Assembly (NCBI GenBank): GCA_001887945.1
Contig: LDOQ01000276.1
Span: forward strand, 1-64,000
DNA from: Spraguea lophii
Taxonomy: Eukaryota; Microsporidia; Spragueidae
Reading direction: 5' to 3'
DNA: 64,000 bases
This document shows positions 1-61,765 of the stretch, one piece after another. The position numbers and the translations under genes are program-made. The notes under the pieces are model-generated. The model was not told the origin of the DNA, searched no databases, and saw only the letters and a list, made by a program, of their open reading frames with translations. The stretch's first letter is position 1. Each line of letters starts with the position of its first letter.

Positions 1-935
1 GGATTTCTTCATTGATTGGAGCCTTCCCTAGAACAAGATGTGCCACTTGGGTCTCCGGATCCGCTAGATGGCTAAAAAGGTTTGGGCATGCAGTGCTTGA
101 ATCTCGTGTTCCTGATCATAAGAAAGTGGAGTTAATCGCAGACGTGATCAGGAACAGAGAGGTCTCTCGGGATAGGTCTGTCATAGGGAGGATCAGAGAT
201 GGTGGTAATATACGTCTGATCCCACCCAAGCTGTTAGCAGCCAAGAACCACCTCTATAGTGGATGGATGGCTTTGATACGTTTACGTATTGGAACATTTT
301 ATATCTCTTATAGAATGGCTGTGTCAGGAAGGATTGACAGCAGATATAGACAGTCCTGTCCCTTCTGCGGTGGCGGAAGAGAGACGATGTTTCATCTCTT
401 GTGGGTATGTCCTAGATGGGCTCTACAAAGAGAAGAAGCATTTAGTTGGATAAGGTCAGAGGACAATATTGTTCTTCGAGCCTTATCTGCTAGCATTTCA
501 AATCCACCAGAAGACAATCCAAGTCTTCTGGGGGTACTCTTAGGGGGAGAGTGGGAAGCTACTGGTCCGCAGCAATCAAAGGTAATTGTGGCTACGGCCA
601 CGTATCTACATAATATAGTAAAAATAAGAAATATAATTTTAAATGAGTATATAGAAGGCCACAGAAACCCTGATGAATAAAGTGGCCAGGGAACTAATTT
701 TAATCTATAAAAAATTTAAAAAATATTTTGTTAAATTATTATATGCCTCCAGGAACCAAAGGTCCCAGACCATGATGGGCCGCAGCCGGCCAGGAGAAGA
801 TTTGTTGTGATCCTCCCCGGAGAAGCTGATATATCAGATTGGGAGTTGAGTTGAAGAGTAGAAAAATAAAAATATAGTTGTAATGAAGTAAAAAAGCATC
901 GTAAATAAAATTTTCTTATGTTTAAAAAAAATAGA
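1..935 (+). mobile_element. Non-LTR retrotransposon (LINE), 3' portion, copy A
   Basis: This is the 3' end of a LINE running in from the left edge: the end of the polyprotein, a 3' untranslated region, and an A-rich end near 935. A second copy of the same 3' end lies at 10871-11610. Both share the untranslated block with 'aaccaaaggtc' and the final stretch 'gtaaataaaattttctta' followed by A residues. The untranslated region (about 750-800) also matches the 3' tail of the SINE copies in this window. The 5' limit is outside the window. Confidence 0.75.
3..680 (+). CDS. LINE polyprotein C-terminus with CCHC zinc knuckle (partial)
   Basis: The frame is open to the left edge, so the start is missing. 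What is visible is the region downstream of a reverse transcriptase, about 226 residues. A zinc-binding motif CPFCGGG..T.FHLLWVCPRW (C-x2-C, then H-x4-C) matches the zf-RVT type of finger that ends many LINE proteins. After it come about 100 residues ending NPDE with no endonuclease motif I can recognise. The reading frame is intact, so this copy may be young. Base composition is clearly richer in G+C than the host genes, as expected for a mobile element. In the second copy the same stretch is frameshifted and has stops. Confidence 0.7.
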   Translation: MSSLIGAFPRTRCATWVSGSARWLKRFGHAVLESRVPDHKKVELIADVIRNREVSRDRSVIGRIRDGGNIRLIPPKLLAAKNHLYSGWMALIRLRIGTFYISYRMAVSGRIDSRYRQSCPFCGGGRETMFHLLWVCPRWALQREEAFSWIRSEDNIVLRALSASISNPPEDNPSLLGVLLGGEWEATGPQQSKVIVATATYLHNIVKIRNIILNEYIEGHRNPDE

Positions 936-1255
936 AAATATTTTCAAAGAATGTTAAATATGGCTTTAAATAATAAAATAAATATATTAATTTTTAAAAA
1001 TTTATAATATTTTATCTAATTTCTATATGTTTACAATATAAGTTATATAAAATGTCATTTAACTACATAAGAGATTATATTTATTTCTTTTAAAATAATA
1101 ACAATTACAATAATGCCATTGTTATTATTAATAGTATATGACAAAAATTTAAAAAAGATTTAAGGAGAATATGCATTATAAAAAAGTTATTTATGGTTTA
1201 ATGATGTTTTCATTAATTATGGTTTAAAAATTTTTATTTTTAATATTTTAACCTA
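936..1255. other. AT-rich spacer between LINE and SINE
   Basis: No coding frame or recognisable repeat is seen. The stretch is almost pure A/T and separates the LINE tail from the SINE target site. Confidence 0.5.
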
Positions 1256-1267
1256 ATCTTATCTGCA
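1256..1267. repeat. Target-site duplication, left copy (12 bp)
   Basis: ATCTTATCTGCA occurs here, immediately beside the poly-A end of the SINE, and again at 1758-1769 beside its truncated head. A perfect 12-bp direct repeat flanking the element is the footprint of target-primed reverse transcription. Confidence 0.85.
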
Positions 1268-1757
1268 TTTTTTTTTTACGAATGAAACTTTTATTTATCA
1301 AAGCTTCCTGGCCGGTTGCGGCCTACCATGGTCTGTGACCTTCGGTTCCTCGAGCGACATTAAACTTGTACTAACTGGTTTCGCTACAGATATGCATTAA
1401 TCTCATCTTACCTTATGCTCCAGAGTGTTAGGATTTTGCGTATGGTGCGCGTCGCCGCCCCCACTTCCAGCTCTTAAGGAATTCCCAGCCTCTTTCGTTG
1501 CATAGTATTGGCCGAGTCACTAATCAATACAGGGATTGCAACTACATCAGCTAAACACTACTTTAATCTAGTAGCGGGGCCGTCATACAAAGCACAGCTA
1601 TGCTGTGCTATCGAAACCTCACCCACTCAACAACCTTTTTTCTTCTCTTCTGCATTTATTATTATTTTTTATTTTTTTTTTGTTTTGAAAACTTTTTCTG
1701 GATGAGGGATTCGAACCCGCCAGGCTTGGGGTTTGGTTACCACCCCACGACCACTGG
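1268..1757 (-). mobile_element. tRNA-headed SINE, young copy, 5'-truncated
   Basis: Read on the minus strand, the element starts inside a tRNA-like head (1698-1757). The head carries a pol III B box GGTTCGAATCC and part of an A box. A unique body of about 360 bp follows, then a tail of about 75 bp and a poly-A run at 1268. It is nearly identical to the copy at 44899-45397 (single-base indels only), so both are recent. The head is cut at the A box, lacking about 15 bp present in the other copy, which is ordinary 5' truncation. The tail (about 1277-1352) matches the LINE 3' untranslated region. Perfect 12-bp target-site duplications flank it. In one frame the body also reads like a decayed LINE C-terminus, which is weak evidence only. 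Confidence 0.85.
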
Positions 1758-1769
1758 ATCTTATCTGCA
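1758..1769. repeat. Target-site duplication, right copy (12 bp)
   Basis: Perfect repeat of ATCTTATCTGCA at 1256-1267, abutting the truncated tRNA-like head. Confidence 0.85.
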
Positions 1770-1837
1770 ACGACTAAAAAATTTTCTTCTATTGGTGTAA
1801 GCATATCTTTTTAAATCCATCCAGTTCCATTCTATCA

Positions 1838-4459
1838 TTATTGATTTAATTCATTATTATTCTTTTCTTCTATGCAAAGATAACCCATTGACCTTAAAAG
1901 TATATGAGCACCTTCATCGTTTATTTGAAAATAATCTTCATCATCAATGTATTCAAATATATTACTTATTCTAAACTCTTCTCCAAATTTCTTAGTTAAA
2001 TATTCCCTTGATTGATTATATAAGGTTAAACCAGATTTTATATCTTTTAGATATTCATTTATTTCTTCTATTATTATTTTGTAAGTAAATTTACTAAAAA
2101 ACTGTTCAATTATATATCTTTTATTATGGAGTTCTGGTATCATAGACATATTACCATATAAATTGGTCGTTTTCTCGAATCCAAGTTCGTCTGCTAATAT
2201 ATTTCTCCAATTTAAAAAAGTCTCAGCTTCTTCCTTTTCACCTTTACCAGTAGTAATGTTTTTAAGGATTTCAAATTTAAGATTTGTTATTATTTCAATT
2301 ATCTTCTCTTCGGCTGAACTACAATCATTTCCTTGTTTCAGAAATATGTATGTTGCTATAAATGCTTCTTCTTGACCATCTAAACAGGAAACATTATCTG
2401 TAGTCGTGTTATGGTTGAAATTTAATTGATCCAAAAGTCTAACAAGCGTTTCTTCTACATCATCTTGTTTTTCTGGAAGCATTTCAGTCATTGTTATTAC
2501 AATAGCTTCGAAATGATCGATGATTGAGTTTCTTTCTTGGCAATCAATAAGTGAATCTTGAATTAGTTCTGGATTATCCTCATAACAATAATATATTTTT
2601 ATTCTTCTTAACAAAAAGTTTAATTTTTCTTCTCTCTTATATGTTATACAATTAAAAATATTTTGTAACATTTCCTCTATTTCTTCTCTAGTTTTTTTAT
2701 GTTTTGGTGGTTTATTCGTTTTACATAATCTTATCATATCTAAATTTAATCTTTCTTTAATAGAAATATCAAGTTCTTCATAAAATGTATCAATATCTAA
2801 ATCAAAGTTTGTGTTTTCCGGAATTGCGAATGTTCTTACCCTATCATATCTGATATTTCTTAAAATGTTTTGATCTACTTGTTCAATAGTGATTAATTCT
2901 GAATTATGCGAATCGGCATCTATCTCCAAACGCAAAGGATTCCTACATAAATTAATTTCCAAATTTCTATTACTCATATTATTGATATTAGAAGGAAGTA
3001 ATTCTATACTATTAAAAATTAAATTCAATTTTTCAAGAGTAACCATGTCAAATATACTTCTATCAATATTGGTTATTCTGTTAAAAGCCAAATCTAGCGA
3101 TTTTAATGAAGTCATGCTTGTAAAAACATTCTCTAGGATAATTATTTCATTACCGTTTGCGTTAAATGTTTTCAAATTTATGAGTTTTGAAATACCCGGA
3201 GATATACTTGTTAAGAAACAATTAGATAAATATAAATATTCGATTTTAGAATTTGTTTGAGCATATTCAAATATATCAACTTCGTCATTGAATCTATTAA
3301 TACAACTAACAGTTAGTTTATATATACCATTATAACAAAAAATATTAGGCAATACACTTATATCTTTAAGAGTTAAAGAAAGATTTATTAGATTATCTCT
3401 TATACAAGGAAATTTCTTAATTTCAGTAAATATGACTCTGAACACTGATAAATTTTTTAGCTGTTTTAATTGAAAAATATTTCGATCAAGTTTTGGAAAA
3501 TTATTGCATTCTAAGTCAAGTGTTTCCAAGCTTCGTAATGCATTATCAGAGATTGATAATTCAGTTATTTCGTTATTATAAAGATATAACCCCAACAAAT
3601 TATTAAACATACCGTTCTTAATAATTAGATTTTTAATACGGTTATAGGAAATATTTAATATTCTTAAGTTAGCAAAGGAATATAGCTCATGAGGTATCTC
3701 TTCAAATAAATTGTCAGAAATATTAAGTTCTTCTAAATTTATAAAATTGCAAAAAACCCCTAAGAACACACTCAAATCATTATCAGGAATAATTAATTTT
3801 TTTAAGGATTTATAAGACGCAAAATTTGTATAATTATTATTATCTGAATAAACAGAAAAATCATTCTTTTTAAATAATGAGTGGTTGTGTGACAAATTTA
3901 ATTTTTTTAGATTTTTTAATCTAAATAAATTTGAACTGATGTTTATTAAATCATAACAATATCCAATATGTAATGTTTCAAGACTGTTCATTTGTACAAT
4001 TCCAGAAGGTATCATATCAAATTTATTAAAATTCAAATGAAGAGTTTTCAATTTTAGTAATGAAAATAGAACCTGGGGAAATTCTTTAAATTCATTAATA
4101 TTCAAATCTAACTCTTCTAATTTTTCAAAATTTTCAAATTGGTCGGGTAATCTGGATAATACCAAACCATTAAGTATTAAATGTTTGATATCATTGATTT
4201 CACAAAATACTACAGGAAATATATTATTTTCTGTAGTATTTTGTGAATCGATGTTATCTAATATTATAATTGTAATTTCTTTCATATCTTCATTTATTTC
4301 AAATAAACATGAAAAATCCAGGTTTTTTATAATTTCATCATATAAACCAGTTTTATATGGGTTGGGTATTAACTTCTTAATACAATCATAATCACTATGT
4401 GTTATTTTATATCTAATACATTTCATCAATGCTGGGAAAAAGACTAATAAAAAGTTCAT
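1838..4459 (-). CDS. Leucine-rich-repeat protein with possible NEL-type E3 ligase C-terminus
   Basis: This 873-aa protein has a hydrophobic start (MNFLLVFFPAL) that could be a weak signal, then LRRs from about residue 85 to 510 with the usual L..L.L..N.....P pattern. The C-terminal 350 residues are helical and Cys-poor. Around residue 692 there is a C-x-D motif (SCLDG), with C692 181 residues from the end. It is followed by NLKFEILKNI (about 726-735) and EAETFLNWRNILADELGF (about 744-761). LRR followed by a helical domain with a C-x-D nucleophile, then an acidic E-x-x-x-(F/Y)-L helix, is the layout of bacterial NEL (IpaH/SspH-type) ubiquitin ligases. The similarity is by eye and unproven. Microsporidia carry large LRR families, so an ordinary LRR paralogue with a lineage-specific tail is the alternative. 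Minus-strand CCC lies 8-10 nt before the ATG (4468-4470), supporting this start. An inverted repeat lies within the gene at 4199-4247. Confidence 0.8.
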   Translation of the reverse strand: MNFLLVFFPALMKCIRYKITHSDYDCIKKLIPNPYKTGLYDEIIKNLDFSCLFEINEDMKEITIIILDNIDSQNTTENNIFPVVFCEINDIKHLILNGLVLSRLPDQFENFEKLEELDLNINEFKEFPQVLFSLLKLKTLHLNFNKFDMIPSGIVQMNSLETLHIGYCYDLINISSNLFRLKNLKKLNLSHNHSLFKKNDFSVYSDNNNYTNFASYKSLKKLIIPDNDLSVFLGVFCNFINLEELNISDNLFEEIPHELYSFANLRILNISYNRIKNLIIKNGMFNNLLGLYLYNNEITELSISDNALRSLETLDLECNNFPKLDRNIFQLKQLKNLSVFRVIFTEIKKFPCIRDNLINLSLTLKDISVLPNIFCYNGIYKLTVSCINRFNDEVDIFEYAQTNSKIEYLYLSNCFLTSISPGISKLINLKTFNANGNEIIILENVFTSMTSLKSLDLAFNRITNIDRSIFDMVTLEKLNLIFNSIELLPSNINNMSNRNLEINLCRNPLRLEIDADSHNSELITIEQVDQNILRNIRYDRVRTFAIPENTNFDLDIDTFYEELDISIKERLNLDMIRLCKTNKPPKHKKTREEIEEMLQNIFNCITYKREEKLNFLLRRIKIYYCYEDNPELIQDSLIDCQERNSIIDHFEAIVITMTEMLPEKQDDVEETLVRLLDQLNFNHNTTTDNVSCLDGQEEAFIATYIFLKQGNDCSSAEEKIIEIITNLKFEILKNITTGKGEKEEAETFLNWRNILADELGFEKTTNLYGNMSMIPELHNKRYIIEQFFSKFTYKIIIEEINEYLKDIKSGLTLYNQSREYLTKKFGEEFRISNIFEYIDDEDYFQINDEGAHILLRSMGYLCIEEKNNNELNQ
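4199..4247. repeat. Perfect 17-bp inverted repeat inside the LRR gene
   Basis: Arms 4199-4215 and 4231-4247 are exact reverse complements (TTCACAAAATACTACAG). Three more A-T pairs and one G-T pair extend the stem inward and leave a loop of about 7 bases. It is in frame and falls near residues 71-87, just before the LRRs. Confidence 0.85.
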
Positions 4460-10870: not shown

Positions 10871-11610
10871 ACATCAGAGATGGTGATAATATACGTCTGG
10901 TCCCACCCAAGCTGTTAGCAGTCGAGAACTACCTTTATAGTGGATGGATGACTCTGATACGTTTGCGTATTGGAGCATTTTATCTCTTTCATAGAATGGC
11001 TGTGTCAGGAAGGATTGACAGCGGATGCAGACAGTCCTGTCCCTTCTGTGGTGGCGGAAGAAAGACAATGTTTCACCTCTTGTGGGTATGTCCTAGATGG
11101 GCTCTACAAAGAGAAGAAGCATTTAGTTGGATAAGGTCAGAGGACAATATTGTGCTACGGGCCTTATTTGCTAGCATTTAAAATCTACCAGAAAACAATC
11201 CAGGTCTTCGGGGGTACTCTTAGGGGGGAGAATGGGAAGCTGCTGGTCCGCAGCAATTAAAGGTAATTGTGGCTACGGCCACTTACCTAAAGTTTATAAT
11301 TAGTTTTAGAAATAGATTATTAAACGAATATATAGAAAGCCACAGTAATCCTGATTCCGAACGTGGCCAGGAAACTAATTAGTGTGTATTTCAAACATTA
11401 ATTTCGTAATATGTTATGTACCTCCAAGAACCAAAGGTCTCCGACAACGATGGGCTGCAACCGGCCAGTAGAAGATTTAATAGTAGACCCTCCCAGAGAA
11501 GCTGATCTATTAGATAGGGAGTTGAGTAGAAGTGTATGAAAATATAAATAATTGAGAAAAAAAAGAAAAAAAATATCGTAAATAAATTTTCTTATTTTTA
11601 AAAAAATGTT
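10871..11610 (+). mobile_element. LINE 3' portion, copy B (5'-truncated, decayed)
   Basis: Aligns to 196-935 at clearly high identity, beginning within the polyprotein at 'atcagagatggtgataat' and ending in the same untranslated block and A-rich end. The abrupt start in the coding region is typical LINE 5' truncation. I could not find a convincing target-site duplication. Confidence 0.8.
10875..11382 (+). pseudogene. LINE polyprotein C-terminus, broken copy
   Basis: Carries the same zinc knuckle (CPFCGGGRKTMFHLLWVCPRW) as the copy at the left edge. A stop codon follows FASI near 11180. A one-base loss near 11208 and a compensating extra G near 11226 then throw the frame, adding another stop. 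The protein cannot be made, so this copy is dead. Confidence 0.8.
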
Positions 11611-16586: not shown

Positions 16587-17147
16587 ATGAAAAAATGTTC
16601 TATCAGCAAAACACTCGATAAAAGATTATCACCAGAATATATTTCATATAGACGCGCGTGGGGTGAAACAGAGGTTGCGTACATTGAAGGATGGTCTGCA
16701 ATAGCTATAGCAAATAAAATATTCGGTTATAATGGATGGTCGTCAACAATCAAAGAAATTAAAATAGATTTTATCGAAGAAGTAAATAAAAAGTTTATTA
16801 TATCGGTATCATGTATTGTAACAATCACATTAAAAGATGGCACACAGCGAGAAGATGTAGGGTGTGGTAGCTCAGAATCAAAAAATAAAATTATAGGAAT
16901 AGAAAAGGCTAAAAAAGAGGCTGCAACAGATGCTATAAAAAGAACATTAAGACAGTTTGGTAATGCATTAGGAAATTGTTGTTATGATAAAGAATATTTA
17001 GCATTCATTAAAAAAAATAGAAAACAAACAAAACCCAAATTCAATTCAAATGATCTTTTAGATAGAAATTTTATTTATGAAAATCAAGATAGCAGCGAAA
17101 TAGATATTTTAGCATCATTTAATAGTGAAGCTTACAAAGATAAATAA
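16587..17147 (+). CDS. RAD52: RAD52 recombination mediator, minimal form
   Basis: 186 aa. Residues about 10-150 are the conserved RAD52/Rad22 N-terminal domain: LSPEYISYRRAWG, YIEGWSAIAIANKIFGYNGWSS, DGTQREDVGCGSSESK, AKKEAATDAIKRTLRQFGNALGNCCYD. This is the DNA-binding and strand-annealing ring domain. Yeast and animal proteins are over 400 aa and add RPA- and Rad51-binding tails. Only a short tail of about 35 residues remains here, so annealing is expected to be kept and classic Rad51 loading may be reduced. CCCC directly precedes the ATG (16583-16586). Confidence 0.92.
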   Translation: MKKCSISKTLDKRLSPEYISYRRAWGETEVAYIEGWSAIAIANKIFGYNGWSSTIKEIKIDFIEEVNKKFIISVSCIVTITLKDGTQREDVGCGSSESKNKIIGIEKAKKEAATDAIKRTLRQFGNALGNCCYDKEYLAFIKKNRKQTKPKFNSNDLLDRNFIYENQDSSEIDILASFNSEAYKDK

Positions 17148-34321: not shown

Positions 34322-34816
34322 ATGGATATTCAAGTAGCATTAAAAAATATCAATAATAATAAAAATATTATAGAAACCTTTGAATACGTAATAAAAAATG
34401 TTTATGAATATGATAATACAACATTATTGGAAATATTTAATAACATAAAAATATTATACTACAATAATACTAAAATAACAAATTATTGGATAAAAATATT
34501 ATCTAAAATAAATTATGAACATTGCAAAAAAGATTGTAATCATAATATAGAAGAAAAATGTGAAATTTTTAAAAATATAGAAAATAATCGTAATAATGAT
34601 ATTTATATTATTTCTCAAACAAACGTAATTAAATATTTAGATTTATTTTTTTATACTGTAAACTTAAAAGAATGTGATATAACTGAACTTATAAATAAAT
34701 ATCAAGGTTTATTGATTAAATACGGTGAATATTTAAATGACGAGGATTTGCAAAGTGTGGAAATAAAATATAATAATGAGTTAAGGGAAGAAATGAAAAT
34801 TTTGGATTTGGAATAA
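34322..34816 (+). CDS. Hypothetical helical protein, 164 aa
   Basis: Not recognised. It is soluble, predicted helical, rich in Asn/Ile/Lys, with a Cys/His cluster in the middle (YEHCKKDCNHNIEEKCEI, C-x3-C-x-H ... C) that might bind a metal. It is followed by a decayed LINE end and then Mtr4. A CC lies a few bases before the ATG. Confidence 0.5.
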   Translation: MDIQVALKNINNNKNIIETFEYVIKNVYEYDNTTLLEIFNNIKILYYNNTKITNYWIKILSKINYEHCKKDCNHNIEEKCEIFKNIENNRNNDIYIISQTNVIKYLDLFFYTVNLKECDITELINKYQGLLIKYGEYLNDEDLQSVEIKYNNELREEMKILDLE

Positions 34817-34882
34817 TTTTTTATTTTATTAAATTTGTTTGATTTTATTTAATATACTTTTTTGTATAACTATTTTGTATTT

Positions 34883-34992
34883 TCCAACTCATCTCTCAAT
34901 CTGATAGTGCAGTTTCTCTGAGGAGGGCATACAATTAAATCTTCTCTTAGCTGGTTGCGGCACATCATGGTTTTAGATCTTTAGCTCTTGAA
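34883..34992 (-). mobile_element. Decayed LINE 3' end
   Basis: On the minus strand 'aaaaccatgatgtgccgcaaccagct...agaagattta' and 'gaaactgcactatcagattgagag' follow the order of the LINE 3' untranslated region at about 750-855, with many substitutions. Only the final ~110 bp are present. It lies about 45 bp upstream of the Mtr4 start. Confidence 0.65.
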
Positions 34993-35034
34993 CTTAAATT
35001 TGTTTGGCTTAAGTAAAAATATTTATTTTTTATG

Positions 35035-35037
35035 CCC
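35035..35037 (+). promoter_or_regulatory. CCC start-proximal motif of MTR4
   Basis: ATGCCCATG: CCC touches the ATG at 35038, which suggests initiation there and not at the ATG two codons earlier (35032). Confidence 0.5.
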
Positions 35038-37749
35038 ATGAATAAAAATATAGATGAATGTTTTGATATTTTTACCGATGAAAGTACTGTGCCAGTAATT
35101 TCTCCTTTAGTGAGTAGCATGGATGAAGAATTATTAATTGAAAGGAATAATTACGGTGATACTATACATGAGATAGTATATCCTAACGGTAAAACAAAGT
35201 TTGAACTTCTTCCACCTTCTGCTATGAATTTTCCTTTTGAATTGGATTTATTTCAAAAGATATCTATTTCTGCTATTAAGCATGATGAAAGTGTTTTGGT
35301 AAGTGCGCATACTTCATCTGGTAAAACGGTTGTCGCGGAATATAGTATTGCTATGGCTTTACTAAATAAACAGAGAGTAATTTATACATCACCTATAAAA
35401 GCTTTGAGTAATCAAAAATATAGAGAATTAAGTAATAAATTTGGTGATGTGGGTTTGATGACTGGTGATACCACAATTAATCCAGAAGCCAGTTGTATTG
35501 TTATGACAACTGAGATTCTGAGGAATATGTTTTATAGAGGAAATGAGATTATGAGAGAAATCCATTGGGTAATTTTTGATGAAATACATTATATGAAAGA
35601 TAGAGAAAGAGGAGTTGTTTGGGAAGAGACAATTATTTTATTACCTAGTCATGTGAGAGCTGTGTTTTTAAGTGCTACAATACCAAATTCATTGGAATTT
35701 GCAAAGTGGGTGGCAACAATACACAAAATGCCTATGCATGTTGTTTATACAGAAAAGAGACCTATACCTCTGATACATTACACTTCTCCTCTTGGCGGTG
35801 ATGGTATGTATAAAATAAAAGACGATGAAAAATTTAATATTAAAAATTATACGCTTGCTTGTAAAGGATTAACAACTAGGAGAAAGAATGCAGAAGATAT
35901 TAAAACGTTAATATATTCTCTTGTAGAAAGAGAGTATTTACCTGTTATTGTATTTTCTTTTAGAAGAAAGGAATGTGAAGAATATGCAACAACCATAACA
36001 GATAATTTTTTAAACGAAGAAGAAAAGGAGACAGTCAGACTTATTTTTGAAAATGCATTGAAATCTTTAAGATCGGAAGATAGATCTTTACCTTTGATAC
36101 AAAATATATTACCACTTTTATTACGAGGAGTAGGTATACACCATTCTGGATTATTACCTATAATCAAGGAAGTTGTAGAGATATTATTTCAAGAAAATTT
36201 ATTGAAAGTACTTTTTGCAACAGAAACATTTTCCATTGGATTAAACATGCCTGCACGTGCTGTAATTTTTACTTCTTTATCAAAATATGATGGTATACAA
36301 GATAGAATCGTTAGTTCTGGTGAATATATACAGATGAGTGGAAGAGCTGGTAGAAGAGGGTTGGATAAAAAAGGAGTTGTAATAAGTTTACTATCAGAAA
36401 ATATTACACTTAAAGAAGCAAAAGAACTTTTTAGTGGAAAGAGTGATAAACTAGATAGTGCATTCCATTTGTCGTATAATATGATATTAAATTTATTAAG
36501 AGTAGAAGGGTTGGATCCTTTATTTTTGTTAGAAAGAAGTTTTTTTCATTTCCAGAAAAAAGAAGAAATTAAAAAAGTAGAGAAAGAAATAAAAAGAATG
36601 TATAATTATTTACAGGAGAATAAAAGAGAAGGTTATGAAGATTTATTAATTAAATTAAAAGAGAGAGAAAATATTATTATGGAAAAAAATACAAATAGAA
36701 AGATTGAACGAGAACATTATAAAATAGGAAGAGTAGTGGATGTAATAATTCCTAGAAATGGACCAGCACTTCGCATTAAAAACGGTGTGATAACTAAAAT
36801 GTTTGAGACCAAAGCAGAGATTACATTTCATGTTGATGATCAATTTAAATCGAAAATATTTCCATTAAATTATATAGAACATTTTTACCAAATGCGCTTA
36901 AAAGTTATAAATGCTGAAACTGTTGGAAGAAAATATCAAAGAATTGTAGAAGATTGTGATGATGCCATACTCAAGATTAATAAAGAAATAGAAAAAATGG
37001 ATGGCTTTATTCCATGGACCAGTTGTTACATATGTGATAAAAAAACAACTGAAGAGTGTATAGACGGTAAATGTTTGCCACAAAATGAGAAGAATGAATT
37101 TTTTTATTATGAAAGACTTAAAGACGAATACAATGAAAAAAATAAAAAATTAAGAGAACTAACTGAAATATATCATATGGAAGAATACAAAAAGATGGTA
37201 CAAGTACTTAGAAGATTAGATTATTATAATGATGATGGTATAACAGTGAAAGGTAGAGTTGCAGCAGAAATATCAACGGGAGATGAATTATTATTAACTG
37301 AGATTATTTTCAATGGAGATTTTCTATCTCTTCCTTTAGAAAATATTTTGGCATTGCTATCATGCACCATATTTGAAGAAAAATCTGATGTTGTTGAAAA
37401 CAACAAAAAAGATTTTGAGATTATAACAAATACTCTTAAGAAATTAACAAACGTTTTTGAAACATGTTCTCTTCGTGCAGATTATGATGAACTTATAAAG
37501 AAATATTCAGCAGGTCTTATGAATACTGTAAAATCTTGGGTAGGCGGTGCTACATTTTTAGAAATTACAAATAAAACAAATGTGTTTGAAGGATCCATAA
37601 TACGATGCTTTAGAAGATTAGAAGAATTGCTTAGGCAATTATCATCTGCTGCAAGAGCTATTGGTAATACTGAATTAGAAAATATATTTTCTTCTGGTAT
37701 CAGTAAAATAAAGAGGGATATAGTTTTTGCAAATTCATTATATTTATAA
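35038..37749 (+). CDS. MTR4: Mtr4-type exosome RNA helicase
   Basis: 903 aa, about 85% of the yeast length. It has a DExH helicase core with motif I AHTSSGKT (90-97), motif II DEIH (181-184), SAT (about 212) and motif VI QMSGRAGRRG (432-441). A shortened arch/KOW region follows (about 530-740, with HYKIGRVVDVIIPRNGPALR), then the helical C-terminus DVFEGSIIRCFRRLEELLRQ and KIKRDIVFANSLYL, which are Mtr4 and not Ski2 signatures. It unwinds RNA for the nuclear exosome (rRNA processing, surveillance). A cluster C663-x2-C666-x7-C674-x4-C679 in the arch could bind zinc. No TRAMP partner is visible in the window. Confidence 0.93.
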   Translation: MNKNIDECFDIFTDESTVPVISPLVSSMDEELLIERNNYGDTIHEIVYPNGKTKFELLPPSAMNFPFELDLFQKISISAIKHDESVLVSAHTSSGKTVVAEYSIAMALLNKQRVIYTSPIKALSNQKYRELSNKFGDVGLMTGDTTINPEASCIVMTTEILRNMFYRGNEIMREIHWVIFDEIHYMKDRERGVVWEETIILLPSHVRAVFLSATIPNSLEFAKWVATIHKMPMHVVYTEKRPIPLIHYTSPLGGDGMYKIKDDEKFNIKNYTLACKGLTTRRKNAEDIKTLIYSLVEREYLPVIVFSFRRKECEEYATTITDNFLNEEEKETVRLIFENALKSLRSEDRSLPLIQNILPLLLRGVGIHHSGLLPIIKEVVEILFQENLLKVLFATETFSIGLNMPARAVIFTSLSKYDGIQDRIVSSGEYIQMSGRAGRRGLDKKGVVISLLSENITLKEAKELFSGKSDKLDSAFHLSYNMILNLLRVEGLDPLFLLERSFFHFQKKEEIKKVEKEIKRMYNYLQENKREGYEDLLIKLKERENIIMEKNTNRKIEREHYKIGRVVDVIIPRNGPALRIKNGVITKMFETKAEITFHVDDQFKSKIFPLNYIEHFYQMRLKVINAETVGRKYQRIVEDCDDAILKINKEIEKMDGFIPWTSCYICDKKTTEECIDGKCLPQNEKNEFFYYERLKDEYNEKNKKLRELTEIYHMEEYKKMVQVLRRLDYYNDDGITVKGRVAAEISTGDELLLTEIIFNGDFLSLPLENILALLSCTIFEEKSDVVENNKKDFEIITNTLKKLTNVFETCSLRADYDELIKKYSAGLMNTVKSWVGGATFLEITNKTNVFEGSIIRCFRRLEELLRQLSSAARAIGNTELENIFSSGISKIKRDIVFANSLYL

Positions 37750-38631
37750 ACAAAATAATTAAATGTTGAATAATAAACATAAATCTGGCATAGAAAAAGG
37801 TTAAAATTAAGATTAAACAAAAAATTATATAAGAGATATCTGCTATACAATAAATAATAATTTAAACATAAAAATAAAAAAGTTATAATACAAATTTTTT
37901 ATTCTAATTTGTATCTCTTACATCCTGTAATTTTTACATGAACATTGCTATATTTTTGCTTAGTAACCATTATTCCCATCCCTATTTCATTCTCTTTCTC
38001 TTCTAAAATATATAATTCTTATTCATGAAATTCATTTTCATTGTCTGATTTTTTATATACTCTATCTTGTGTGATATTATAGAAGATTCTTTTTTAATAA
38101 GTTCTGGGAAAACATTTTACTAAAAAAATGATTATCTCTCATCATTTAATATAAAGTTATAGTTTTTTGCATCGATTTTTCTTATTGATGAAACTTTCAT
38201 TTATAGAAGTTTCCTGGCTGGTTGTGGCCTATCCTTATCTATAATATTTGGCTTCTAAACCATATTTAAACTTGTATTAATTGGTTTCATTACAAATATG
38301 CATTAACCTTATCTTACCTTATGCTTCAGAATGTTAAGATTTTACGTATGGTGCACGTCGCCGCACTCCCAACTTTATAAAAATTCCTACCCTCTTTGTA
38401 TATATTGTTAATAACAACACTTTCATTACAATATAATAAATCAAAGTAATTACAGTCCATCATGATTTTAAATGATGAATTCAATTGTTTTTATTAAAAT
38501 TTCATACACATTTTCAAAAAAGTAATTTTTATTATAAAAATAAATATTTTTTTTAAATTAAAAAAAACTTTTAATGAATAAAACATTCTTACAAAATTAT
38601 GAAAATTAAAATACTATTAAAATGCACAATT
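37750..38631. other. Convergent intergenic region with SINE relic
   Basis: AT-rich. The only recognisable content is the old SINE at 38175-38412. Confidence 0.45.
38175..38412 (-). mobile_element. Old SINE copy, 3' half
   Basis: From 'attgatgaaactttcatttatagaagtttcctggctggttgtggcc' to 'ttacgtatggtgcacgtcgccgcactcccaac' the order of the young SINE is kept at roughly 80% identity by eye. The tRNA head and first body part are missing. Confidence 0.75.
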
Positions 38632-44884: not shown

Positions 44885-44898
44885 AGTTTATTAAGTAA
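44885..44898. repeat. Target-site duplication, left copy (14 bp)
   Basis: AGTTTATTAAGTAA here is repeated perfectly at 45961-45974, so the duplication spans the whole 1.06-kb composite and not only the inner SINE. Confidence 0.85.
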
Positions 44899-45324
44899 TT
44901 TTTTTTACGAATGAAACTTTTATTTATCAAAGCTTCCTGGCCGGTTGCGGCCTACATGGTCTGTGACCTTCGGTTCCTCGAGCGACATTAAACTTGTACT
45001 AACTGGTTTCGCTACAGATATGCATTAATCTCATCTTACCTTATGCTCCAGAGTGTTAGGATTTTGCGTATGGTGCGCGTCGCCGCCCCCACTTCCAGCT
45101 CTTAAGGAATTCCCAGCCTCTTTCGTTGCATAGTATTGGCCGAGTCACTAATCAATACAGGGATTGCAACTACATCAGCTAAACACTACTTTAATCTAGT
45201 AGCGGGGCCGTCATACAAAGCACAGCTATGCTGTGCTATCGAAACCTCACCCACTCAACAACCTTTTTCTTCTCTTCTGCATTTATTATTATTTTTTATT
45301 TTTTTTTTGTTTTGAAAACTTTTT

Positions 45325-45397
45325 CTGGATGAGGGATTCGAACCCGCCAGGCTTGGGGTTTGGTTACCACCCCACGACCACTGGGCCAGGCGGGACT
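45325..45397 (-). mobile_element. Inner SINE tRNA-like head (pol III A and B boxes)
   Basis: On the minus strand: A box TGGCCCAGTGG and B box GGTTCGAATCC, about 40 nt apart, as in tRNA genes. The acceptor ends do not pair, so it is a tRNA-derived promoter head and not a working tRNA. The same sequence recurs at 1698-1757, 45888-45959 and, decayed, at 46505-46572. Confidence 0.8.
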
Positions 45398-45398
45398 C

Positions 45399-45680
45399 TG
45401 TTCTCTTTATAGCTCCAAAAATCCAAGTTCCATCAATCCTACAATCTTTATTGTATTATCTATTACCGAATTTTGATTCTTTAATTTCTACATTGACATC
45501 TTTCCCACCTAATTTAATATTTTTATGTATTTTAATACAATTTTTTATTGTTTTTGTTTTTACGTTATATAATAATATAATACACTTGTTACTTACTAAA
45601 ATATTATATATTATTGAAATAACTTTATCACAAGCTAGTTTTGAATTAAAAAAAGTTTTTAATAATAAAAATTTTGGTTT
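45399..45680 (-). pseudogene. Merlin / ISXO2-type DDE transposase relic
   Basis: One minus-strand frame reads KLGGKDVNVEIKESKFGNR, a stop, then YNKDCRIDGTWIFGAIKRTESR, preceded by about 55 further codons. The IGG..V.VEIDESKFG..KYN.G....G.W.FG...R..S pattern is the catalytic region of ISXO2-like (Merlin) transposases. The first catalytic Asp is Lys here (VEIKES) and a stop follows FGNR, so it is dead. The relic ends exactly where the inner SINE head begins, so the SINE truncated or captured it. Confidence 0.65.
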
Positions 45681-45887
45681 TTATACATTTTATTATAATT
45701 TTAATATTTTTTACAATGCTCCTCCGGTAAAGCAGTGCATACACACTATTATAGTTGTTTTTCTTCTATGAATATGGTTTTAAAACACTCTAATACCATT
45801 CCTTTTTGTTTGTTATCACAAGTGTAAAAAAAAATTTAATTTCTTTCAAAAGGGTATATTGTAGGTATCTGAGCTCCAATTTTTTTT

Positions 45888-45959
45888 CTGGATGAGGGAT
45901 TCGAACCCGCCAGGCTTGGGGTTTGGTTACCACCACACGACCACTGGGCCAGGCGGACT
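45888..45959 (-). mobile_element. Outer SINE tRNA-like head
   Basis: Almost identical to the inner head (one-base loss at the 5' end, one C/A change). It is followed on the minus strand by A residues instead of the SINE body. It marks the 5' end of the composite and abuts the 14-bp duplication. Confidence 0.75.
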
Positions 45960-45960
45960 A

Positions 45961-45974
45961 AGTTTATTAAGTAA
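45961..45974. repeat. Target-site duplication, right copy (14 bp)
   Basis: Perfect repeat of 44885-44898. Confidence 0.85.
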
Positions 45975-46169
45975 ATAATAAAAAATACATCCATAAGATT
46001 ACCCAAGTATTATAATGTAACAACGACGTCTTCATATAAATACGTTATATTATACTATTATCTTTCTTTTTTATCTTCAAAATATCTAGAATTGACTTTC
46101 AAATATTTTTGGAATACTATGATTATTTTTTTCAAATAACATTTTAATTATTATCAAAACGCACTAACT

Positions 46170-46572
46170 AATGAGGTCTACTATAATTGAGATTATTTGT
46201 TCCTTAAAGCACAAGTAGCTTGTATTACCAATGTCGTTACATATATATATATCAATCCTATCCCATCTTATACTTTAGAATATTAGGGCTTTACATATGG
46301 TACACACTACGCCTTCCATTAATCTTGATGAAATTATAACCCTCTTCCTTGCATAATATTGGTTAATTCATTAATTAATATAGTAAATGAAACTGCACCA
46401 GTTAAACTTTACTCTAATTTAGTAGTTCGGCCATTGTACAAGAAATAATCAAATTACGTTATCGAATCCACATTTACCCAATTTTTTTATTTTAAAAACT
46501 TTTTAGGCGAAGGTCTCGAACCCGCCATGCCTGGGATTTAGTCATCACCGCATTGCCACTCGACAAACCGAT
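46170..46572 (-). mobile_element. Old, nearly full-length SINE
   Basis: Decayed but ordered match to the SINE from just inside the LINE-like tail (about 46172) through the body ('cttatactttagaatattagggctttacatatggtacac') to the tRNA-like head (46505-46572, 'gtctcgaacccgccatgcctggg'). Heavily substituted, so much older than the adjacent composite. Confidence 0.7.
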
Positions 46573-58371: not shown

Positions 58372-58530
58372 TTACGTTCTTAGATGAAATTTTTATTTAT
58401 AAAAGTTTTATAATAGATTATAATCTCTTATGATACGTAATTTTGGTTTCTCGTTATTTTTTGATTTGTAATTGATAAGTATTAGAGTATATTCACCACT
58501 CTCGTCTTATTCTCTGTTATATATTTTTCA
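58372..58530 (-). mobile_element. Very old SINE copy
   Basis: 'gatgaaatttttatttataaaagtttt...taattttggtttctcg...attgataagtat...caccactctcgtcttattctctgt' keeps the order of SINE tail and body at low identity. Ends shortly before the uL11 start. Confidence 0.5.
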
Positions 58531-61652: not shown

Positions 61653-61684
61653 GGATAAAAAATATTTAGAATAATAATTTTTAT

Positions 61685-61765
61685 TTTTTTTAATAAAACT
61701 TTTATTTATAGAAGTTTACTAACCGATTGCAGTCTATTGTGGTTTATAAAGCATATTTAAGAAAA
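61685..61765 (-). mobile_element. Old SINE tail fragment
   Basis: 'aataaaacttttatttatagaagtttactaaccgattgcagtctattgtgg' matches the LINE-like tail of the SINE. Confidence 0.5.

What the first reader, a model, noticed from the sequence alone, without database searches (positions are those of the whole stretch)
1268..1757. tRNA-headed SINE whose 3' tail matches the local LINE
The last ~75 bp of the SINE (about 1277-1352 on the minus strand) aligns with the LINE 3' untranslated region at about 745-800. By eye roughly 50 of 56 positions of the block around 'aaccgaaggtcacagaccat' agree. Both then end in a similar 'taaataaaa.tttc' stretch and A run. With a pol III A/B-box head this is the structure of a SINE mobilised in trans by its partner LINE. 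I know of no well-described SINE of this type in microsporidia.
Basis: partly seen in the sequence, partly recalled or inferred. Interest (0 to 1): 0.85.

Follow-up and report, generated by a model that had tools for sequence, protein, structure and literature searches.

The report
Microsporidian SINE borrowing LINE tail
A short non-coding "hitch-hiker" DNA element, present in about a hundred young copies in the small genome of a microsporidian parasite, ends in the same kind of RNA tail as a larger self-copying element there and so probably spreads by borrowing that element's copying enzyme, an arrangement known from animals, plants and some fungi but apparently not described before in this group.

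Summary
Window 1268-1757 (minus strand) is one copy of a ~490-bp SINE flanked by a perfect 12-bp target-site duplication (1256-1267 / 1758-1769). The 5.27-Mb genome holds 111 heads at <=3 mismatches (reversed-pattern control 0). The 31 copies aligned average 1.4% from consensus; 23 of 31 have >=9-bp duplications abutting the 5' end (mode 14; re-paired control mean 0.6). Family heads carry a Pol III A box (30/31) and B box (31/31); the window copy lost its first 12 nt and part of the A box. The tail match to the neighbouring LINE is real (49 of 56 aligned positions; best of 10,000 shuffles scores half) but bipartite: a ~47-nt double-hairpin block and a short terminal motif, 10 nt apart in the SINE, 108 nt apart in the window LINE. 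The LINE is APE-type by weak domain matches; some 5'-truncated copies also carry duplications. My searches found no complete LINE copy, so helper activity is inferred. It is a LINE-tailed SINE with a tRNA-like promoter: a new member of a known kind, apparently undescribed in microsporidia in the papers I could search. Unsettled: partner identity, hairpin function (covariation test negative), and the head's tRNA source (none found).

The parts
1268..1757 (-). SINE copy, starts at consensus position 13 (lacks first 12 nt)
   Evidence: 480 of 490 aligned columns match the 31-copy consensus; 40 near-full-length matches at 96-100% among 43 matches in the genome
1758..1769 (.). Target-site duplication at the 5' end of the SINE (TGCAGATAAGAT on minus strand)
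1256..1267 (.). Target-site duplication at the 3' end of the SINE
1707..1717 (-). Pol III B box GGTTCGAATCC
   Evidence: exact match, kept in 31 of 31 copies analysed; box consensus recalled
1745..1757 (-). Remnant of tRNA-like 5' head with incomplete A box (family consensus TGGCCCAGTGG)
1360..1640 (-). SINE body (about 280 nt, limits approximate), origin unknown
   Evidence: no Rfam match beyond a B-box-like 13-mer at E<=1; no blastn hit to 8 LINE and old-SINE loci except tail, A-rich stretches and the old SINEs themselves
1308..1354 (-). Shared core tail block: hairpin ACCG-AA-GGTC-ACA-GACC-A-TGGT plus hairpin GGCCG-CAAC-CGGCC
1278..1298 (-). Terminal tail motif ATAAATAAAAGTTTCATTCGT, followed by A(10) at 1268-1277
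3..680 (+). C-terminal part of LINE ORF with C-X2-C-X8-H-X4-C zinc knuckle (read by eye); contig starts inside it
   Evidence: no Pfam match at E<=0.01
681..931 (+). LINE 3'UTR ending in A-run 924-931; shared core ~747-793 and terminal motif from 902
44899..45396 (-). Second young SINE copy (full length, complete head)
45883..45958 (-). SINE head only, followed by a DNA-transposon-like piece; its 5' flank TTACTTAATAAACT (45961-45974) recurs as the 3' flank of the copy at 44899-45396 (44885-44898)
38176..38407 (-). Old SINE relic (79% over its best 200 nt)
46150..46570 (-). Old SINE relic with head and body (76-79% in pieces)
61679..61743 (-). Relic of a SINE 3' end
34812..35050 (-). Old LINE 3'UTR relic with the shared block
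10873..11606 (+). Older LINE copy (C-terminal ORF with 2 stops at 10873-11355, 3'UTR to 11606) with the shared block

Best explanation
The element is a non-autonomous retroposon (SINE). Step 1 (inferred): RNA polymerase III transcribes it from the A and B boxes of its tRNA-like head. Step 2 (inferred): the reverse transcriptase of an APE-type LINE in the same genome binds the RNA through the shared 3' tail (double hairpin plus terminal motif and A-run). Step 3 (products shown): target-primed reverse transcription inserts it at A/T-rich sites, leaving duplications of most often 14 bp, A-tails and some 5'-truncated copies. The partner is most likely the LINE family lying at window 3-931, or an unassembled close relative of it.
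For: 111 heads at <=3 mismatches and 119 tail-core hits at <=1 mismatch (the latter include LINEs), reversed-pattern controls 0. 31 copies 0.6-3.2% from consensus, mean 1.4%. TSD >=9 bp in 23 of 31 copies, 11 of those 23 exactly 14 bp, re-paired control mean 0.64, max 3. Of 31 listed tails without a listed head, 6 were opened and all 6 are 5'-truncated SINEs, 4 with repeats of 11-14 bp and 2 of 8 bp, no separate control. A box and B box together in 30/31 at tRNA-like spacing (A starts at 9, B at 53); one T4 and no T5 run in the sense consensus against six A runs of >=4; 1 of 31 copies has a sense T5. Tail similarity to LINE far beyond shuffles; nine further LINE copies at 37-42 of 45-48 positions. 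LINE copies have repeats >=11 bp in 4 of 21 3'UTR loci, all four 5'-truncated, control 0. Same double-hairpin MFE for the SINE core and the core of LINE copy L038. EN and RT in a 479-aa frame: PF14529 and PF00078, both below curated cut-off, and L1 ORF2p-like at E ~1e-9. A degenerate copy (C1, L047) carries the start of that RT, remnants of this C-terminus and this 3'UTR together.
Against: No complete LINE copy was found, and none of the LINE cores compared is identical to the SINE core. The SINE lacks ~98 nt that the window LINE has between the blocks. Hairpin covariation is not above shuffles (81-247 of 500 shuffles reach the five observed values). The window LINE copy itself does not fold into the double hairpin (z -0.64 and -0.40). 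In 9 old SINE relics the core is less conserved than the body (291/401 against 1667/2125, P 0.011). No ARAGORN tRNA in the head, and no clear progenitor among 40 of the 57 genomic tRNA matches. No RNA data.
Confidence: 0.82

Rival explanations
1. The SINE is mobilised by a different or unassembled LINE (for example LINE-B of contig C21, 39% identical in protein over 89 residues, or a subfamily whose 3' end lacks the ~98-nt segment); the window LINE only shares an ancestral tail.
For: None of the LINE cores compared is identical to the SINE core. LINE-B's 3' region holds a weak sequence match with the same hairpin layout (60 of 3000 shuffles score as high). Young LINE pieces stop at contig edges, so copies are probably missing.
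Against: The LINE-A core is far closer (up to 42 of 47) than LINE-B; LINE-A copies also share the terminal motif and A-run.
Confidence: 0.17
2. Relaxed, L1-like recognition: the LINE uses only the terminal A-run, and the tail core is a historical remnant of how the SINE was built.
For: The SINE and LINE copies printed end in A-rich runs; no covariation and no extra conservation of the core in old copies.
Against: The core is the only long block found shared by the two otherwise unrelated sequences. A polyA-only system should also mobilise mRNAs, but retrogenes were not searched for here.
Confidence: 0.2
3. The tail similarity arose the other way round: the LINE captured its 3' block from a SINE, or both took it from a third element.
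For: The core lies 108 nt inside the terminal motif of the window LINE, not at its very end.
Against: Strongly diverged LINE relics (62-72% identity: L041, L046, L047) still show a block in the same place.
Confidence: 0.1
4. Artefact or host contamination: the repeats belong to host DNA in the assembly.
For: SINE G+C is 43-46% and LINE frames 43-48% while the window is 23%.
Against: The 100 listed heads lie on 48 of 73 contigs; copies are inserted with TSDs on the contig that carries the microsporidian Rad52 gene and are nested with older relics of the same family.
Confidence: 0.02

Closest known systems
Mg-SINE of Magnaporthe grisea with LINE MGR583, and SINE2-1_BG of Blumeria graminis with Tad1-24_BG (rows of Table 1 of PMC3747384, passage seen)
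   Same: tRNA-type SINE in a fungus with a 3' end shared with a local LINE
   Different: The Blumeria partner is named a Tad1 element; their sequences were not compared here. This host is a microsporidian with a 5.27-Mb assembly, and the shared tail is in two blocks
Eel LINE UnaL2 and its SINE, and other 'stringent' SINE/LINE pairs (passages of PMC3747384)
   Same: Shared tail with an RNA hairpin thought to be read by the LINE reverse transcriptase
   Different: UnaL2 ends in TGTAA repeats and a cited paper's title speaks of the hairpin's functional importance (title only); here the end is A and nothing has been tested
Entamoeba histolytica EhLSINE1 with EhLINE1 (row of Table 1 of PMC3747384)
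   Same: SINE/LINE pair in a unicellular parasite
   Different: The table lists its promoter as unknown; here the head has A and B boxes and the LINE has an APE-type endonuclease
'SINE' line in the Nosema bombycis repeat table, 28,669 bp, 0.18% (PMC3614468, passage seen)
   Same: SINE reported from a microsporidian in a classification table
   Different: 'SINE' occurs once in that text; no head, tail, TSD or partner in the passages seen

Membership tests
tRNA-type SINE | Short, non-coding, dispersed multi-copy element | tested here: met
   ~490 bp; 111 heads; stops in all six frames of the consensus
tRNA-type SINE | Internal Pol III A and B boxes at tRNA-like spacing | tested here: met
   A at 9-19, B at 53-63 of consensus; both in 30 of 31 copies; the window copy has only B
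tRNA-type SINE | Head derived from an identifiable tRNA or folding as one | tested here: not met
   ARAGORN finds none; best of 40 genomic tRNA loci (of 57 matches) aligns only loosely; MFE is not a cloverleaf. Head is tRNA-like by promoter boxes only
tRNA-type SINE | Pol III transcript | not testable with these tools
   no RNA data; a near absence of sense T5 runs is compatible
LINE-mobilised retroposon | Target-site duplications, A-tail, 5' truncation | tested here: met
Stringent SINE/LINE pair | 3' tail homologous to a LINE of the same genome | tested here: met
   49 of 56; shuffles at most half the score; two blocks, not continuous
Stringent SINE/LINE pair | Conserved RNA hairpin in the tail | tested here: inconclusive
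   window SINE tail z -2.63, same fold in the core of LINE L038 but not in the window LINE; covariation not above shuffles
Stringent SINE/LINE pair | Active full-length partner LINE | tested here: inconclusive
   a 479-aa EN-RT frame and open C-terminal frames exist but on different contig edges; no complete copy found
Stringent SINE/LINE pair | LINE reverse transcriptase needs the tail | not testable with these tools
   bench assay needed
SINE superfamilies with a conserved central domain (CORE, V, Deu and others; names recalled) | Known central domain sequence | not tested
   no SINE reference library on hand

The most novel reading that the evidence does not exclude
Microsporidian LINEs of this lineage read a compact, bipartite RNA signal (double hairpin plus terminal TAAATAAAA-nTTTC-A(n)) that works with or without the ~98-nt spacer. 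The SINE is a natural minimal version of it. The same hairpin layout in a second LINE (LINE-B, 39% identical in protein over 89 residues) would make it an old, lineage-wide recognition element. The 43-48% G+C of these LINE frames in a 23% G+C window would fit arrival from another host.
Probability: 0.25. Interest if true: 0.62.

Novelty: new member of a known kind. Interest (0 to 1): 0.5.

Why it matters
Microsporidia are known for genome reduction, yet this one carries about 110 recent SINE heads, about 1% of the assembly if each were full length. That implies a working LINE reverse transcriptase and Pol III in the same cell, and it gives near-identical dispersed repeats that seem already to have recombined with one another. 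The ~98-nt difference between two shared blocks points to the minimal RNA the LINE enzyme may need, which is testable in vitro. Young insertions could also serve as strain markers.

Tried and rejected
Known RNA in the element: Rfam scan of window 1-4000 at E<=1 gave only a 13-nt B-box-like match. Host tRNA as progenitor: 40 of the 57 tRNA matches fetched, none a convincing source; the other 17 were not fetched. SINE body derived from LINE parts: in the 8 loci compared (5 LINE, 3 old SINE) the LINE hits were tail, A-rich or flanking stretches. Preference of SINEs for tRNA genes: 5 of 100 listed heads within 500 bp of 56 of the 57 tRNA matches, expected 1.7 (P 0.03), but 5 within 1000 bp against 2.7 (P 0.14); treated as chance. 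Covariation support for hairpins: none. Extra constraint on the core in old copies: none, slightly the reverse. A second SINE type with the same head: of 40 listed heads without a listed tail, 12 opened, 11 were full-length SINEs with a changed tail core and 1 head-only. A template-jump chimera at 44885-45974 was considered and dropped after the middle proved to be a repeated element. Other species: the window LINE C-terminus found no protein at E<=0.001; the EN-RT piece found 20 proteins, the named ones from Acanthocheilonema viteae, Smittium culicis and Strigamia maritima. No other microsporidian genome was searchable. Literature. Judged by listed titles and abstract starts, none describes a microsporidian SINE family; several listings were capped (30 of 661, 25 of 2,252, 30 of 32, 12 of 19), and subscription papers are not in that library.

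Full report
What is there. The window is the start of contig C11 of a 5.27-Mb, 73-contig assembly. It is microsporidian by its Rad52 protein (16587-17147), whose nearest named relatives are in Trachipleistophora hominis (58%) and Hamiltosporidium magnivora (59%); no named identical protein was listed, so the species is not identified. At 1268-1757 on the minus strand lies one copy of a repeated element of about 490 bp, between perfect 12-bp direct repeats. Beside it, at 3-931 on the plus strand, lies the 3' end of a LINE: a C-terminal ORF with a zinc knuckle, a 3'UTR and an A-run.

The family. A genome search scored 40 of 451 first-look candidates and gave 43 matches: 40 near full length at 96-100% identity and 3 partial ones at 76-98%. 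By pattern, 111 places match the 34-nt head at up to 3 mismatches and 119 match the 19-nt tail core at up to 1 mismatch (LINE copies included); the reversed patterns match nowhere. The 100 listed heads lie on 48 contigs; 111 x 497 bp is about 1% of the assembly. The 31 distinct copies aligned differ from their consensus by 0.6-3.2%, mean 1.4%, so the family spread recently. Relics at about 70-80% identity show that it is also old here.

Retroposition marks. In 23 of 31 copies a direct repeat of at least 9 bp abuts the 5' end and recurs after the A-tail; 11 of the 23 are exactly 14 bp; re-paired flanks give a mean of 0.64 and at most 3 in 200 trials. Two of the remaining eight (L020) are an opposite-strand pair whose repeats are swapped, as after recombination between the two copies. 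Of the 100 listed tail hits I set aside 6 LINE copies and 3 old SINEs; of the 91 left, 60 have a head 385-414 bp upstream and 31 have none listed within 700 bp. Six of those 31 were opened: all six are 5'-truncated SINEs, four with repeats of 11-14 bp and two of 8 bp. The LINE shows the same marks: 4 of 21 3'UTR loci have repeats of at least 11 bp (control 0), all four in 5'-truncated copies.

The head. The consensus begins GTCCCGCC and has an A box (9-19) and a B box (53-63) with tRNA-like spacing; both are intact in 30 of 31 copies. The window copy is the exception: it begins at consensus position 13 and keeps only the end of the A box. The head is not recognised as a tRNA by ARAGORN, does not fold as a cloverleaf, and none of 40 genomic tRNA loci compared (of 57 matches) is a convincing source. 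The sense consensus has one T4 and no T5 run against six A runs of four or more; 1 of 31 copies has a T5, which suits Pol III. No transcript data were available.

The tail. SINE tail and window LINE 3'UTR agree at 49 of 56 aligned positions with one 2-nt gap (score 38); 10,000 shuffles reach at most 19. Against nine further LINE copies the core agrees at 37-42 of 45-48 positions (the tenth row, L031, picked up the window SINE itself and is ignored). The terminal motif agrees at 19 of 25 positions; being A/T-rich it would mean little alone, but it sits at the very end of both. Between the end of the core and the terminal motif there are 10 nt in the SINE and 108 nt in the window LINE. The window SINE tail is predicted to form the two hairpins (z -2.63, 3 of 200 shuffles as good), and the core of LINE copy L038 has the same minimum-energy fold, although the window LINE copy does not. 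On 17 sequences the pairing is kept in 86.5% of cells, but none of the five measures stands out from shuffled columns (81-247 of 500 shuffles as high), so covariation gives no support (one row, L063, is shifted by a base in that alignment). In nine old SINE relics the core is less, not more, conserved than the body (291/401 against 1667/2125, P 0.011), perhaps because G+C-rich stretches decay faster here; I report this as a result against special constraint visible in dead copies.

The LINE. A 479-aa frame on contig C72 carries an APE-type endonuclease (PF14529) and the start of RVT_1, both below the curated cut-offs; it resembles human L1 ORF2p at E about 1e-9 over residues 360-467. No young copy of the middle of the reverse transcriptase was found; the young pieces stop at contig edges. 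That these pieces are one element rests on a degenerate copy on C1 (L047), where the C72-type RT start, remnants of the window-type C-terminus (read by eye) and the window-type 3'UTR follow one another, and on a degenerate copy on C48 that matches both the C72 and C61 pieces at 26-61%. A second LINE (LINE-B, C21:1-815, 39% identical over 89 residues) has a weak core-like match of the same hairpin layout in its 3' region (60 of 3000 shuffles as high). The LINE frames have 43-48% G+C where three host genes have 24-34%.

Verdict and comparison. It works like, and meets most tests of, a LINE-tailed tRNA-type SINE. The one defining feature tested and not met is an identifiable tRNA source, so 'tRNA-type' rests on the promoter boxes. 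In the review whose table I saw in part (PMC3747384, passages), SINE/LINE pairs are listed for animals, plants, algae, Entamoeba and two fungi, with no microsporidian among the rows shown. A microsporidian transposon survey (PMC4202319, passages) lists LINEs, and its main text has no word beginning with SINE; the N. bombycis genome paper has one table line 'SINE 0.18%' (PMC3614468, passage); the Spraguea lophii paper reports transcripts of non-LTR elements (PMC3749934, passages). The paper searches named under Tried and rejected showed, by titles and abstract starts, no description of a microsporidian SINE family. So: new member of a known kind, in a phylum where it seems undescribed in the open literature searched.

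Noticed in passing
L020/L013 (C45:92455-92938 + and 93186-93673 -): Two young SINEs in opposite orientation with exchanged target-site duplications, the mark of an inversion by recombination between the two copies.
   Followed up: partly
window 44885-45974 (-): SINE head, then ~480 bp of a repeated element, then a full SINE, all inside one 14-bp duplication (TTACTTAATAAACT). Best read as SINE in transposon in SINE followed by SINE-SINE recombination.
   Followed up: partly
window 45400-45882 (-); C42:5504-6388; C14:41400-42307: Part of a DNA-transposon-like repeat (29 matches from 20 candidates) whose terminal ~70 bp recur inverted about 0.9 kb away, so probably a terminal-inverted-repeat element.
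   Followed up: partly
C21:1-2100 (L066, L120, L124): A second LINE (LINE-B, 48% G+C) followed by a 5'-truncated LINE-A copy and a piece of LINE reverse transcriptase: nested LINE insertions at a contig end.
   Followed up: partly
C40:3118-3300 (L132): A head-only SINE fragment starting about 10 bp downstream of a tRNA match.
   Followed up: partly
window 58384-58408 (-): Isolated 25-nt stretch like the SINE terminal motif between two ORFs; origin not identified.
   Followed up: no
window 1838-4459 (-): 873-aa leucine-rich-repeat protein next to the SINE; a large LRR family is described as possible pathogenicity factors in Spraguea lophii (PMC3749934, passages).
   Followed up: no
C73:38503-41979 (L067), C44:26334-29807 (L069): LTR-retrotransposon-like pol frames (515 and 395 aa open) are present in the same genome.
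   Followed up: no
contig edges C15, C25, C58 (tails at 47-48); C3, C19, C35, C36, C46, C47, C48 (heads below position 400): Many contigs begin in a SINE copy, so young SINEs probably break this assembly and true copy number may be higher.
   Followed up: no
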